Below, in pieces: positions 1 through 53,797 of a DNA stretch of 64,000 nt. Location: NCBI GenBank assembly GCA_021324435.1, contig JAJPIZ010000002.1, positions 1-64,000 on the forward strand, read 5' to 3'. The stretch comes from Anaerolineae bacterium. GTDB lineage: Bacteria > Chloroflexota > Anaerolineae > Anaerolineales > Villigracilaceae. Numbering within the stretch: the first letter of the stretch is position 1; every line of letters starts with the position of its first letter. Both the position numbers and the translations under genes were made by a program. The notes under the pieces are model-generated. The model saw only the letters and a list, made by a program, of their open reading frames with translations. It did no database searches and was not told the origin of the DNA.

Positions 1-79
1 CCAACGGGAGCGAAGAATCTCGTTTTTTTTTCGTTCAAAATTTGAGATTCTTCGTCGCTTCGCTCCTCAGAATGACACA
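1..79. repeat. Dispersed inverted repeat, family A (5' end cut by window)
   Basis: Two oppositely oriented copies of a GAGCGAAGAATCTC-type arm (near 8-21 and 47-66) flank an A/T-rich loop, and the right end reads CTCAGAATGACA. The same arms and end sequence recur at 15404-15526, 18158-18263 and, diverged, 53719-53797. It lies downstream of the lipoprotein gene. The left end is outside the window. Confidence 0.7.
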
Positions 80-120
80 TGAAATTGATTTTGCATACAC
101 ACTCTAGGCCGCTTTTCTCG

Positions 121-13356: not shown

Positions 13357-14199
13357 ATGCCTTTAAATTCAAATGCACCTATCGGCGTTTTTGACTCCGG
13401 CGTTGGCGGGCTTTCCGTTCTGCGCGCCATACGCGGGCAGATGCCCGAAGAGTCGGTCCTCTATTTTGGCGATCAGGGACATATCCCTTACGGGCCGCGG
13501 CCGATGGCCCAAATCCAGGATTTCTCCGAGACGATCACGCGCTTTCTGTTGGATCGCGGCGCGAAGATCATCGTCGTGGCATGCAACACAGCTTCTGCCG
13601 CGGCGCTGAAATATCTGCGGCAGACCTTTCCTGATGTTCAATTTGTCGGCATGGAGCCGGCGGTCAAGCCTGCCGCGGAGCGCACCGAGACCGGTGTGGT
13701 GGGAGTCCTTGCCACGCCCGCTACGTTTCAAGGCGCGCTGTACGCGTCCGTGGTGGAGCGTTTCGCCAACGGCGTACAATTGCTTCAGCATACTTGTCCT
13801 GGCCTCGTTCAGCAAATCGAAAAGGGTGATTTGGATGGGCCGGAGACACGTCGCATTTTAGACGAGGCGTTGAATCCCATGCTCGAAAAAAATATTGACA
13901 CGGTCGTGTTGGGATGCACGCACTATCCGTTTGTGATTCCGCTCATCGAGCGGATTGTGGGGGATAAAGTGCGGGTGATTGACCCCGCTCCGGCGGTGGC
14001 GCGACAGACCAAACGTCTGCTGGAGGCGGGCGGGTTGAAGAGTCTAAATGGGGCGCGCGGCGAGCATAGCGAAATCCAATTTTATACGTCCGGCAACGCG
14101 GAGTCGCTTCGATCCCTTCTGCCGAAATTGCTCGGCGAAGAAGGCGCGGTCACAACGATAAAATGGGAGGGCGACAAAACATTGAAAGTGGGTGATTGA
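13357..14199 (+). CDS. murI: Glutamate racemase
   Basis: A 280-residue MurI, a cofactor-independent racemase supplying D-glutamate for peptidoglycan. The two catalytic cysteines are Cys76 in 'VVACNTAS' and Cys187 in 'VLGCTHYPF'; the N-terminal 'IGVFDSGVGGLSVLRAI' block is diagnostic. Length is normal for the family. It is divergent from the histidine kinase gene and followed by the M4 protease gene about 70 bases away. Confidence 0.96.
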   Translation: MPLNSNAPIGVFDSGVGGLSVLRAIRGQMPEESVLYFGDQGHIPYGPRPMAQIQDFSETITRFLLDRGAKIIVVACNTASAAALKYLRQTFPDVQFVGMEPAVKPAAERTETGVVGVLATPATFQGALYASVVERFANGVQLLQHTCPGLVQQIEKGDLDGPETRRILDEALNPMLEKNIDTVVLGCTHYPFVIPLIERIVGDKVRVIDPAPAVARQTKRLLEAGGLKSLNGARGEHSEIQFYTSGNAESLRSLLPKLLGEEGAVTTIKWEGDKTLKVGD

Positions 14200-14269
14200 A
14201 TTTTCGTTGGAATGGGAGTAAAGTAAGTGCAGTCGGTTTTACAGGCATGGATTGCAAAAGGAGTTGCAG

Positions 14270-15403
14270 ATGGACCATCACATTGATCCTTTGCTTTGCA
14301 TTATTCCCCCTCACATGTTGAAAAATATCGCTGAAAAAGGCACGGACGCGCAGAAGCGCGCCGCGCTTGCCGCGCTCTCTGCCTCGGCGCGCATCCGTGA
14401 ACAACGCACCGCGTTCATCAAAGCGATGGTCGTGAAAGTTCCGGCGGCGATTTCCGGAAAGCATCGCGCGGTGTATTCGGCCAATAATCTAACTTCATTG
14501 CCTGGAGTTCTCATGCGCGATGAAGGCGCGCCTCCGAGCGCGGATGTAGCGGTCAATGAAGCCTATGATGGTTCGGGCGCGATGTATGATCTTTACATGG
14601 ACGTTTATCAGCGCAACTCTTTGGACGGAAATGGATTGCGTTTGAACTCGACCGTGCATTACGATAAAAATTATGACAACGCCTTTTGGAACGGCGAGCA
14701 AATGGTGTACGGCGACGGCGACGGACAGTTCTTCAATCGCTTCACGATTTCGATTGACGTGATCGGACATGAACTGACTCACGGTGTGACCCAGTACACA
14801 TCCAATCTCGATTACAGGAACCAGCCCGGCGCGCTGAACGAATCGTTCTCCGACATCTTCGGTTCGCTGGTCAAACAGCGCACGAAAGGCCAGACCGCGG
14901 ATCAGGCAGATTGGTTGATCGGCGCGGAACTGTTGACGATGAATGTGCGCGGCGTGGCGTTGCGTTCGATGAAAGCGCCGGGGACGGCGTACAACGATCC
15001 GGTTCTTGGCAAGGACCCTCAACCGGCCCACATGAAAGATTACGTCACCACGCTGGAAGATAACGGCGGTGTCCACATCAATTCAGGGATTCCGAATCAC
15101 GCCTTTTATGTGATGGCCGTTGAGATGGGCGGCTTCGCGTGGGAAAAGGCCGGGCGCATCTGGTACGTCGCGGCCCGCGATGATTTCAACAACACCACGA
15201 ATTTCCAAAGCGCGGCGAACTTGACGTATAAGGTCGCGGGTGAATTGTACGGCGTTGGAAGCATCGAGCAGATGGCCGTCGCGAAAGGCTGGAGCGAAGT
15301 GGGCATCACGGTTGGCGTTCAGCCACAACCCCAGCCTCAACCGGATGGATGTCTCGCCGCGCCGGTGGCCTTTATACGGTCACTGTTTTCAGGAAAATCT
15401 TGA
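14270..15403 (+). CDS. M4 family metalloprotease, protealysin type
   Basis: A 377-residue zinc protease of the thermolysin family. The zinc site is 'HELTH' at 167-171 with the third ligand Glu in 'GALNESFSDIFGSL' about 20 residues later; the catalytic 'GGVHINSGIPNHAFY' block is present near 267-281. There is no signal peptide. Instead the N-terminus has a short precursor region with 'CIIPPHML', the hallmark of protealysin-like M4 enzymes, which are made without a Sec signal and process themselves. A proline/glutamine linker and about 20 extra residues end the protein. AAGGAG lies 6 bases before the ATG at 14270. The gene pairs with the emfourin-like gene at 15541. Confidence 0.92.
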   Translation: MDHHIDPLLCIIPPHMLKNIAEKGTDAQKRAALAALSASARIREQRTAFIKAMVVKVPAAISGKHRAVYSANNLTSLPGVLMRDEGAPPSADVAVNEAYDGSGAMYDLYMDVYQRNSLDGNGLRLNSTVHYDKNYDNAFWNGEQMVYGDGDGQFFNRFTISIDVIGHELTHGVTQYTSNLDYRNQPGALNESFSDIFGSLVKQRTKGQTADQADWLIGAELLTMNVRGVALRSMKAPGTAYNDPVLGKDPQPAHMKDYVTTLEDNGGVHINSGIPNHAFYVMAVEMGGFAWEKAGRIWYVAARDDFNNTTNFQSAANLTYKVAGELYGVGSIEQMAVAKGWSEVGITVGVQPQPQPQPDGCLAAPVAFIRSLFSGKS

Positions 15404-15526
15404 TGTCATTCTGAGCGACCGCAGGGAGCGAAGAATCTCCTTGTGATGTTTATTGAGATTCTTCGCCGCTCGCTTCTACTTCGGGCTTCGCCATCCGCTC
15501 AGCGCGAGACGCGGCTCAGAATGACA
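15404..15526. repeat. Dispersed inverted repeat, family A (complete copy)
   Basis: Begins TGTCATTCTGAGC immediately after the protease stop codon and ends GCTCAGAATGACA, a perfect terminal inversion of 13 bases. Inside are GAGCGAAGAATCTC and GAGATTCTTCGC. It separates the protease gene from the inhibitor gene. Confidence 0.75.
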
Positions 15527-15540
15527 AGGAAAGAAGCGAA

Positions 15541-15840
15541 ATGAAAATTGACTTTGTGCGGAGCGGAGGCTTCGCGGGTTTGCGTTTAGCGGTCAATGTA
15601 GACACCCAGGACCTTCCTGATGCTGAAGCCGCGCTATTGGAGAAACTGATTCGGGATTCAGGCTTCTTCGATTTAGCGGAGCATATCAAATCGCCATCGG
15701 GCGGCGCGGACCGGTTTGAGTATCGTCTGACGGTTTCAGAGGGAGGCCGTTCGCACACCGTGACGGTCAGCGAGGCGGCTGTACCCGAGGGCCTCCGTCC
15801 GCTGATTGATCGGCTGACTGAGATGGCGAAGGGTCTCTAG
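15541..15840 (+). CDS. Emfourin-like inhibitor of the adjacent M4 protease
   Basis: A 99-residue cytoplasmic protein without signal peptide or membrane segment. The start 'MKIDFVRSGGFAGLRLAVNVDT' contains the 'RSGGFAG' segment that I recognise from the emfourin family, proteinaceous inhibitors encoded beside protealysin-type M4 proteases and thought to hold the protease inactive inside the producing cell. The predicted make-up is beta-strand, helix, then beta-hairpin ('YRLTVSEGGRSHTVTVSE'). Its position 138 bases downstream of an M4 protease gene, on the same strand, supports the assignment. A ribosome binding site (GGAAAG) precedes the ATG. Confidence 0.8.
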   Translation: MKIDFVRSGGFAGLRLAVNVDTQDLPDAEAALLEKLIRDSGFFDLAEHIKSPSGGADRFEYRLTVSEGGRSHTVTVSEAAVPEGLRPLIDRLTEMAKGL

Positions 15841-15872
15841 TTTTTCGGAAAGAGACGAGACTCTTCGGTCGC

Positions 15873-15902
15873 TTGGTCTCGATACACTTCGCTACTCGAC
15901 CA
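15873..15902. repeat. Short repeat, 'TTGGTCTCGAT ... TCGACCA' type
   Basis: Second copy of the repeat type seen at 6334-6376; TTGGTC and GACCA ends are complementary. It lies between the convergent inhibitor and phosphatase genes. Confidence 0.45.
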
Positions 15903-15929
15903 TCGCTCCCTCAGAGCGACATTCCTTTT

Positions 15930-17354
15930 TTAACCCTCCGTCCCAATGGACTGTGTCTGCCAAGTTTTATCTTTGTAATTGACCGTGTACGTCACGCGGG
16001 GCTTTCCATCTTTGTTGAATTGAACATCCACCATCCCGTAATTGATGTGACCAATCGAAAAGTGGACGCGCGAATTCCTCAACGCCTTGCTTGAAGACTT
16101 GACGATCAATAATTTCGCCATCCAATTGATGCCCTGCTTGAAGGGCGTGGCGCAAAACTCCCAAATCGGAATGACCTTGCCGTTCGGTCCCGGAAGTTCC
16201 GCCGAGATGGCGTGGGCTTCGTGCAAATCTCCAGCCAGGATATAAACGTTCTCAATTCCCTGCTCTGCTAAAAAGAAAAGCAGGCGGTCGCGCTCGGCTT
16301 TGAAACCGGACCAGCGGTCGTTGGCGATATCGCCGAACATCTCGAACAAAAACGCGGACGATGAGGCAATGAACTTGACTGGATAAACATCCTTCACGTC
16401 CATCAACCATTCGGTCAACATCTTCCATTGCGTCTCGCCGAGCATGATCTGCGTTTCCTTGTTGTGGACTCGCATCGTGCGTGTGTCCATGACGAAGAAG
16501 GCCGCCGCGCCGTAATAAAACGTATAAGCCAGTGAACCGGCGTCTTCCCCCATCAAATTGAAATCGCCCGTCCCTTTTTGACGCTCCATCGGCAAAAGCA
16601 TCTTCGGCGCGTGCATCCCCTGATGTTCCCAATAGGCCTGCAACGCGTCGCGGATGCGCTGACGCGGAATCCGCCGCTCAGCCAGCGGGCGACCGCCGAG
16701 CCAGCGGATGAGGCGCGTGTACCACGGGACGAATGCTTCATTGCGCGCCGTGTTTGCCCAGCGCCAGTCATTGTCCACTTCGTGATCGTCGAGCGTCATA
16801 AACACAGGAACTTTTGAGAGCAGTTCGCGCAAGTCCGGGTCGGACCACGTGTTTGCATACACCTGCCGATATTCATCGCGCGTCACGGCCACTTTGCCAA
16901 GCCCGTTGTATTTCCATTCATCGGCGTAGATTTGGTCGCCGAGCATCATCAGGAAGGCTGCATCTTTTTGATGATCCAGAATGTGACGGAAGGCCTCGCC
17001 CGGATTCTTTTTGTCCGGCCTGAAGCAGGAACCGAACGCGAATCGGAACGGAGTGACTTTCCCCGGCTTCGGAAACGTTTTGAACGGCCTGTATTCTTTC
17101 TTTGCGGGCTTATTACCGTCCACTCGCAACGCGTAATAATAGATTGTCTCAGGTTTCAACTTTTTGATCGCAACGATTCCTGCAAAGGCGTTTGCGCTCC
17201 ACAAAGTCGTTTTGCCTGCCAGGCGCGCATCGCTCAAATCCGGCTGGGTCGCGATCCACGCAGAAAGCACGGATCTGGAATCCGCGCGCGCCCAAAGATT
17301 GACGCTGTTGTGTGAGAGTCCTCCAATTAGCGGCCCCAAAATCATTTTTGCCAT
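15930..17354 (-). CDS. PhoD-like phosphatase (alkaline phosphatase D family)
   Basis: A 474-residue metallophosphoesterase. N-terminal beta-sandwich at about 1-95 ('LGPLIGGLSHNSVNLWARAD'-like start), then the PhoD catalytic core: 'FAFGSCF' near 105-111, 'MLGDQIYADEW', 'LDDHEVDNDW', and a C-terminal 'LAGDLHEAHA' with the metal-binding histidines. Such enzymes are phosphomono- or phosphodiesterases. Unlike classical PhoD it has no Tat signal, so it should act in the cytoplasm or be of a different substrate class. The substrate is unknown. Confidence 0.87.
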   Translation of the reverse strand: MAKMILGPLIGGLSHNSVNLWARADSRSVLSAWIATQPDLSDARLAGKTTLWSANAFAGIVAIKKLKPETIYYYALRVDGNKPAKKEYRPFKTFPKPGKVTPFRFAFGSCFRPDKKNPGEAFRHILDHQKDAAFLMMLGDQIYADEWKYNGLGKVAVTRDEYRQVYANTWSDPDLRELLSKVPVFMTLDDHEVDNDWRWANTARNEAFVPWYTRLIRWLGGRPLAERRIPRQRIRDALQAYWEHQGMHAPKMLLPMERQKGTGDFNLMGEDAGSLAYTFYYGAAAFFVMDTRTMRVHNKETQIMLGETQWKMLTEWLMDVKDVYPVKFIASSSAFLFEMFGDIANDRWSGFKAERDRLLFFLAEQGIENVYILAGDLHEAHAISAELPGPNGKVIPIWEFCATPFKQGINWMAKLLIVKSSSKALRNSRVHFSIGHINYGMVDVQFNKDGKPRVTYTVNYKDKTWQTQSIGTEG

Positions 17355-18157: not shown

Positions 18158-18263
18158 TGTGTCGCCCTGAGCCGAAACCCTGAACGAAGTGAAGGGGCTG
18201 GCGAAGGGTCTCCGCCGCTACGCGGCAGGATTCTTCGCTCCATTCTGTCGCTCCGAATGACAC
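18158..18263. repeat. Dispersed inverted repeat, family A (variant)
   Basis: Ends GTGTCGCCCTGAGC and GAATGACAC are inverted; inside is GGATTCTTCGCTCC as in the other copies. It fills the gap between the carboxylase operon and the CYTH gene. Confidence 0.6.
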
Positions 18264-53718: not shown

Positions 53719-53797
53719 GTGTCACTCTGAGCCGCGGAGTGGCGAAGAGTCTCGAAAGTCTCGAGGTCGAGATGCTTCGCTCCGCTCAGGATGACAC
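53719..53797. repeat. Dispersed inverted repeat, family A (diverged), between sufB and sufD
   Basis: Ends GTGTCACTCTGAGC and GCTCAGGATGACAC are near-perfect inversions. It begins 5 bases after the sufB stop codon and ends just before the sufD start. Confidence 0.7.

What the first reader, a model, noticed from the sequence alone, without database searches (positions are those of the whole stretch)
14270..15840. Protealysin-type protease next to its probable inhibitor, separated by a mobile-looking repeat
An M4 enzyme without signal peptide and with the protealysin-type 'IIPPHML' precursor is followed by a 99-residue emfourin-like protein. The pair resembles a toxin-antidote couple at the protein level. 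The repeat at 15404-15526 starts on the base after the protease stop codon, where it could fold and uncouple expression of the two genes.
Basis: partly seen in the sequence, partly recalled or inferred. Interest (0 to 1): 0.5.

Follow-up and report, generated by a model that had tools for sequence, protein, structure and literature searches.

The report
Protease-inhibitor gene pair split by palindrome
A bacterial gene for an intracellular protein-cutting enzyme sits, as it does in many related genomes, right before the gene for its probable inhibitor, but here a hairpin-forming repeat of a widespread kind lies between the two, starting exactly after the enzyme's stop codon.

Summary
14270-15403 encodes a protealysin-like M4 protease (best solved chain 2vqx over residues 10-346); 15541-15840 encodes an emfourin (PF20242, 90.8 bits, cut-off 27). 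The pair is conserved: 16 of 20 emfourin matches outside this genome, in 60 relatives, have the M4 gene directly upstream, gaps -4 to 28 nt. Here the gap is 137 nt: a 123-nt repeat plus 14 nt. A protealysin-emfourin operon is already in print (PMC9505478, passages). The repeat is a head-to-head dimer of a TGTC-tagged hairpin and resembles the CGTC/TGTC REP superfamily of Di Nocera et al. 2013 (PMC3733652), but differs from their text in stem, loop and tail; their consensus figure could not be read. Its units show compensatory change (57 of 61 distinct units in other phyla complementary; shuffles mean 19.5, maximum 30), and an exact 27-mer form occurs in records of many phyla. 'Toxin-antidote' and 'uncoupling' are plausible but untested; a hairpin starting 0 nt after a stop codon is in the range reported to lower translation of the upstream gene in E. 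coli (PMC12306157, passages). No Y1-type transposase was found beside the repeats.

The parts
14270..15403 (+). protealysin-like M4 protease gene, 377 aa, propeptide-like N-terminus with IIPPHML
   Evidence: PF01447 108.1 bits, PF02868 193.7 bits, PF16485 23.1 bits (below cut-off 28.1); 2vqx E 3.2e-106 over residues 10-346
15308..15400 (+). C-terminal tail of the protease (residues 347-377): P/Q-rich linker and a Gly-Cys motif, outside the part aligned with solved structures
   Evidence: end of the 2vqx alignment at residue 346; Gly-Cys in 19 of 19 aligned tails
15404..15526 (.). TGTC-tagged head-to-head REP-like dimer, 123 nt, starting 0 nt after the protease stop codon
   Evidence: inverted repeats, folds, 40 places in the genome
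15404..15442 (+). left half-unit: TGTC, ATTCT/AGAAT stem, GA opposite GA, upper stem, CTC
   Evidence: matches the unit rule (one search lists C43:15405-15439); fold
15452..15526 (-). right half-unit in the opposite orientation, with a longer upper part
   Evidence: arms; fold
15527..15533 (+). AGGAAAG, ribosome-binding-site-like, for the inhibitor
   Evidence: read; predicted 0.83 unpaired; role inferred
15541..15840 (+). emfourin-family inhibitor gene, 99 aa
   Evidence: PF20242 90.8 bits, cut-off 27

Best explanation
A protealysin-emfourin operon. The protease is made in the cytosol with a short propeptide; emfourin binds the active enzyme and protects the cell's own proteins (inferred from the Serratia pair, not tested here). 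In this genome a TGTC-tagged REP-like dimer sits in the short gap between the protease stop codon and the inhibitor start; comparison with relatives makes an insertion in this lineage the simplest reading. Most likely effect, inferred only: the hairpin at the protease stop codon lowers protease translation, as E. coli REPs within 15 nt of a stop codon are reported to do, while the inhibitor is translated from its own site instead of by coupling. That would tilt the ratio towards the inhibitor.
For: Family matches. Pair and short gap conserved: 16 of 20 non-own matches, -4 to 28 nt; in the three same-genus relatives in which the pair has a short gap and was compared directly (G002, G003, G004) no repeat lies there. 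123 + 14 = 137 nt, and 14 is within the relatives' range. Published operon and its loss-of-inhibitor phenotype (PMC9505478, passages). REP effect within 15 nt of a stop codon (Liang et al. 2015 as cited in PMC12306157, passages). Inhibitor site predicted open.
Against: Propeptide profile below its cut-off. No measurement of expression or inhibition. Closeness of such dimers to stop codons in this genome is not clearly beyond what short gaps give: 11 of 18 against 8.35 expected, sd 1.49. The opened gap could as well cut inhibitor output and so raise free protease. The E. coli effect may not hold in this organism.
Confidence: 0.7

Rival explanations
1. The operon is as described, but the repeat is a neutral passenger with no effect on either gene.
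For: About 93 units in this genome by the unbiased rule; dimers sit in many unrelated gene gaps; placement near stops 11 of 18 against 8.35 expected.
Against: Very stable predicted hairpin starting 0 nt after a stop codon, in the range reported to matter in E. coli.
Confidence: 0.45
2. The repeat ends transcription, so that protease and inhibitor have become separate transcription units.
For: A terminator-like site at 15420-15445 on the + strand and a promoter-like site at 15521-15548.
Against: Both are weak: the tail ATGTTTATTG is not a clean T run; promoter-like sites 1 found against 0.8 in shuffles; terminator-like sites 5 against 2.0 (sd 1.5) over the whole stretch.
Confidence: 0.15
3. The pair is an antibacterial effector with its immunity protein, or a toxin-antitoxin pair, rather than a housekeeping protease with a safety catch.
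For: The authors of PMC9505478 propose interbacterial competition (passages).
Against: No export signal by eye; no convincing PADLOC match (only AbiEi at E 0.022 for the inhibitor); no secretion genes were looked for beyond the direct neighbours.
Confidence: 0.15
4. The compensatory changes in the repeat units come from template switching at imperfect palindromes during replication, not from recognition of the hairpin.
For: G-T pairs are rare among variants (0 of 33, 2 of 32 and 1 of 61 distinct units in this genome, relatives and other phyla; 4 of 82), as expected if DNA copying makes perfect palindromes (mechanism recalled).
Against: The GA opposite GA step persists uncorrected in the units; but these letters were required by the search rule, so their constancy was not measured.
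Confidence: 0.3

Closest known systems
protealysin-emfourin operon of Serratia proteamaculans (PMC9505478, passages; Chukhontseva et al. 2021 seen only as cited)
   Same: M4 protease gene and emfourin gene in one operon, protease first
   Different: Here a 123-nt repeat separates the genes; the protease carries a C-terminal Gly-Cys tail beyond the part aligned with 2vqx; inhibition untested
CGTC/TGTC-tagged REPs, Di Nocera et al. 2013 (PMC3733652: abstract, section 3 parts 1-2, passages)
   Same: TGTC tag on one side, hairpin, short unpaired tail on the other side, head-to-head dimers, located after genes, no transposase beside it
   Different: Text gives stems of 8-9 bp, loops of 4-5 and mostly CCA tails in five phyla; here five pairs, GA opposite GA, variable upper stem and loop, tail CTC, and records of further phyla. 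Their Figure 2 was not readable, so identity with one of the four families is not excluded
E. coli GTAG REP with its transposase TnpA-REP (PMC8266576, passages)
   Same: Hairpin with mismatches in the stem, a tetranucleotide tag 5' of it, CT next to the hairpin
   Different: Tag is TGTC, not GTAG; no Y1-type gene found beside the repeats
MITE of the same genome (window 1-107 and 23 other stretches)
   Same: Carries a nested copy of the same kind of palindrome
   Different: 15404-15526 has none of its flanks

Membership tests
protealysin-like M4 peptidase | M4 catalytic and alpha-helical domains with HExxH, downstream Glu and His | tested here: met
   PF01447 and PF02868 above cut-off; motifs read, roles recalled
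protealysin-like M4 peptidase | short protealysin-type propeptide | tested here: inconclusive
   PF16485 23.1 bits, cut-off 28.1; alignment with 2vqx starts at residue 10 of the protein and 8 of the chain
protealysin-like M4 peptidase | no signal peptide | tested here: inconclusive
   judged by eye from the N-terminus; no predictor run
emfourin | PF20242 domain | tested here: met
   90.8 bits, cut-off 27
emfourin | gene next to an M4 protease gene | tested here: met
   window, and 16 of 20 non-own matches
emfourin | inhibits its M4 protease | not testable with these tools
   needs an enzyme assay
toxin-antitoxin or effector-immunity pair | enzyme harms cells that lack the inhibitor | not testable with these tools
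   only the Serratia data of PMC9505478
CGTC/TGTC REP superfamily | CGTC or TGTC next to the hairpin, head-to-head dimers | tested here: met
   TGTC at both outer ends; further dimers in this genome
CGTC/TGTC REP superfamily | stem of 8-9 bp, loop of 4-5, tail mostly CCA (the four published families, by their text) | tested here: not met
   five pairs, GA opposite GA, upper stem and loop of variable length, tail CTC; the published figure could not be compared
GTAG REP with RAYT | GTAG tag and a Y1 transposase nearby | tested here: not met
   tag TGTC; two Y1 genes in this genome unflanked; 0 of 118 cross-phylum loci with 12 Y1 queries at E 1e-3
MITE of this genome | conserved flanks CTAGGGTCTGTATGCAAA / TTTGCATACACACTCTAG | tested here: not met
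   absent around 15404-15526

The most novel reading that the evidence does not exclude
The repeat belongs to a so far undescribed REP family found across many bacterial phyla, whose units are single-strand hairpins with a freely covarying triplet between fixed blocks and stacked GA-opposite-GA steps, spread by an unknown enzyme acting in trans; its landing at the protease stop codon has rewired the protease/inhibitor ratio in this lineage.
Probability: 0.2. Interest if true: 0.65.

Novelty: new variant of a known kind. Interest (0 to 1): 0.38.

Why it matters
The gene pair itself is a further member of a known operon type. Two things are useful. It is a natural case in which a conserved tight enzyme-inhibitor gap has been opened by a hairpin at the stop codon, so the effect of such repeats on two proteins that must balance can be measured directly. 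And the repeat unit occurs in the same form in many phyla with no Y1-type transposase beside it, which makes the open question of what moves CGTC-type REPs suitable for a targeted search.

Tried and rejected
Rejected: that the repeat is a copy of the MITE at window 1-107 (flanks absent). That a Y1-type transposase sits beside it; other enzyme classes were not screened. That held plasmids or phages carry something similar (no match at E 1e-5). That it is a described Rfam RNA: in 14000-16500 only two matches far below their gathering scores, neither on the repeat. That closeness to stop codons is a strong preference of the dimers (11 of 18 against 8.35, sd 1.49). That call examined only copies in held loci; left out were copies within 300 nt of a locus end, copies of the MITE, single units, copies inside genes, and one dimer (L101) without a gene on one side; gene calls were my own simple ones. 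DNA hairpins of single units are no more stable than shuffles (z about 0.2); only the dimer is. One search found nothing because I wrote the pattern one base too long; it says nothing about the genome. One search did not turn all loci to the gene's strand and was replaced; one search picked wrong frames for several Y1 genes and was replaced. One search did not settle the organism, so no name is claimed; I suspect Chloroflexota (Anaerolineae) from impression only. A PADLOC match of the inhibitor to AbiEi (E 0.022, 12.5 bits) was judged chance.

Papers: PMC9505478 passages; PMC3733652 abstract, section 3 parts 1-2 and passages (figures not held); PMC12306157 passages; PMC8266576 passages; PMC12320835 passages (no use). 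Chukhontseva et al. 2021 and Liang et al. 2015 were seen only as cited. All others: search listings. That this repeat's sequence is not in print rests on exact strings in the held library and in one paper; a weak negative.

Full report
WHAT IS THERE. The window holds an intact protealysin-like protease gene at 14270-15403 and an emfourin gene at 15541-15840 on the same strand. The protease aligns with chain 2vqx_A over residues 10-346 (E 3.2e-106); the next chains are bacillolysin and thermolysin types. That 2vqx is Serratia protealysin is recalled; the output says only 'metalloproteinase'. The last 31 residues lie outside the aligned part. The emfourin domain scores 90.8 bits against a cut-off of 27; no solved structure matches the inhibitor convincingly (best E 0.5). 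Neighbours are an Asp/Glu-racemase-family gene (13357-14199, +) and a PhoD-like phosphatase gene (15930-17354, -).

IS THE PAIR CONSERVED. Of 61 genomes (own plus 60 relatives) 18 have an emfourin match, 21 matches in all. Of the 20 matches outside this genome, 16 have the M4 gene directly upstream on the same strand: 15 by the HExxH frame, and L042, cut by its contig end, by its M4-like C-terminus only. Four (L049, L057, L060, L061) do not. Distances from the protease stop to the start of the aligned emfourin are -4 to 28 nt. In a sample of 301 genomes of the phylum 30 match PF20242. Of the 30 loci returned, one per genome and this genome included, 18 have a protealysin-like frame upstream, 4 have an M4 frame downstream, and 8 show no M4 motif in the stretch held. 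Some of these genomes were already. So the pair is common but far from universal.

THE REPEAT. The window's gap is 137 nt, of which 123 are the repeat 15404-15526; the remaining 14 fit the relatives' range. Three same-genus relatives with the pair (G002, G003, G004) have 15-25 nt and no repeat there, so insertion in this lineage is the simplest reading, though these relatives are distant (emfourin 54-56% identical). The repeat has perfect outer and inner arms and folds far better than shuffles as RNA and as DNA. It is a head-to-head dimer of a unit that occurs 93 times in this genome by a rule that leaves the stem triplet free (GTCANNNTGAGN{2,26}GAANNNTCTC: 45 + 48, control 0). In 24 distinct stretches, window 1-107 among them, such a palindrome is followed by the flank of a longer element whose complete copies run from CTAGGGTCTGTATGCAAA to TTTGCATACACACTCTAG (26 rows, two places seen twice). 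The copy at 15404 has none of this flank.

UNIT STRUCTURE. Each unit is TGTC, a five-pair stem (ATTCT/AGAAT in the commonest form), GA opposite GA, a variable upper stem and loop, and CTC. The triplet after GTCA and the triplet before TCTC vary together: TTC/GAA, CTC/GAG, CCC/GGG, TCC/GGA, TGC/GCA, CGC/GCG, TGT/ACA. Counting distinct units in held loci, 31 of 33 are complementary in this genome (shuffle mean 12.2, maximum 21), 30 of 32 in relatives (21.6, 26) and 57 of 61 in the cross-phylum loci after 128 copies identical to the search string were set aside (19.5, 30). Strings copied from the capped listing of the phylum sample, without this genome's rows, give 62 of 82 (13.7, 27); several of the misses look like chance matches to the rule. 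Units are related by copying, so these numbers overstate independence, and the fixed blocks were required by the rule. The GA-opposite-GA step appears again in longer loops such as TGAG-GGAGCGAAGCGACC-GAA. That tandem G.A pairs in 5'-Py-GA-Pu-3' context and d(GCGAAGC) hairpins are unusually stable in DNA is recalled; the tool's energies give single units no advantage over shuffles.

SPREAD. Many are metagenome-assembled, so single cases may be misbinned. In 35 genomes (this one plus 34 reached through 35 of those loci, chosen because they hold the 27-mer) the rule matches 1 to 373 times per genome; the reversed control matches once in two genomes and never in the other 33. In the phylum sample, not chosen for the repeat, 77 of 301 genomes match at least once, 32 of them five times or more by my hand count, while the control matches once in each of 6 genomes, so single matches may be chance. 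A stricter rule matches in 19 of 61 relatives, 172 times in one.

WHAT MOVES IT. No Y1-type transposase was found beside the repeats. The two Y1 genes of this genome are unflanked; of 30 relatives' Y1 loci one has a tag-like site, far from the gene; in 118 cross-phylum loci 12 Y1 queries found nothing at E 1e-3, though distant Y1 types could be missed. Di Nocera et al. state that CGTC repeats are not associated with transposase genes (PMC3733652). Other enzyme classes were not screened.

PLACEMENT AND LIKELY EFFECT. Among 18 dimers of this genome outside the longer element and outside genes, 11 lie within 15 nt of a stop codon by my own simple gene calls, against 8.35 (sd 1.49) expected if placed evenly in the same gaps. 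Many sit in tight same-strand gene pairs, but closeness to the stop is not clearly beyond that. E. coli REPs fewer than 16 nt from a stop codon are reported to downregulate translation (Liang et al. 2015, as cited in PMC12306157). By analogy the hairpin at 0 nt may lower protease output and end translational coupling to the inhibitor, whose AGGAAAG is predicted open (0.83 unpaired with the repeat, 0.62 without). The ratio would then shift to the inhibitor. This is inference; nothing here measures expression, and the opposite shift is not excluded.

VERDICT. Observation confirmed. The pair is a new member of a known operon type. The repeat is best filed beside the CGTC/TGTC REP superfamily as a variant; since the published consensus figure could not be read, identity with one of its four families is not excluded.

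Noticed in passing
window 15308-15400; loci L043, L044, L047, L048, L050-L056, L058, L059, L283, L284, L290, L291: The proteases end in a P/Q/G-rich linker and a short tail with Gly-Cys followed by a helix-like stretch (such as GCLTALLRALG). Gly and Cys are invariant in 19 of 19 tails that I chose and aligned; L045, L046 and L293 also show it by eye. It is missing in L281, L294, L295, L298 and L300, all of other classes of the phylum. Function unknown; anchoring, targeting or a cysteine switch are guesses.
   Followed up: partly
L310:2017-2505 (G000:C16); L297, L299, L308: A second, lipoprotein-like protein of this genome carries a weak emfourin domain (30.7 bits, cut-off 27). In three other genomes of the phylum such a protein (51.3 bits in L299, 26.4 in L308; L297 not scanned on its own) is directly followed by a larger M4 protease gene, two of the three with an FTP propeptide motif above cut-off; L306 looks alike by motif only. 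This may be an exported version of the pair in inverted order.
   Followed up: partly
window 1-107: One end of a MITE-like element (24 distinct stretches in the genome, many at contig ends) that carries a nested copy of the palindrome.
   Followed up: partly
window 53720-53796 and 18229-18262: A further dimer of the same kind with CTC-type triplets, 5 nt after a 509-codon frame, and a 34-nt fragment.
   Followed up: partly
G054 (172 matches) and G066, genome of L109, Helicobacter marmotae (373 matches): Genomes with very high copy numbers of the unit; G054 has only one Y1-type gene. Good places to look for the enzyme that spreads the repeat.
   Followed up: no
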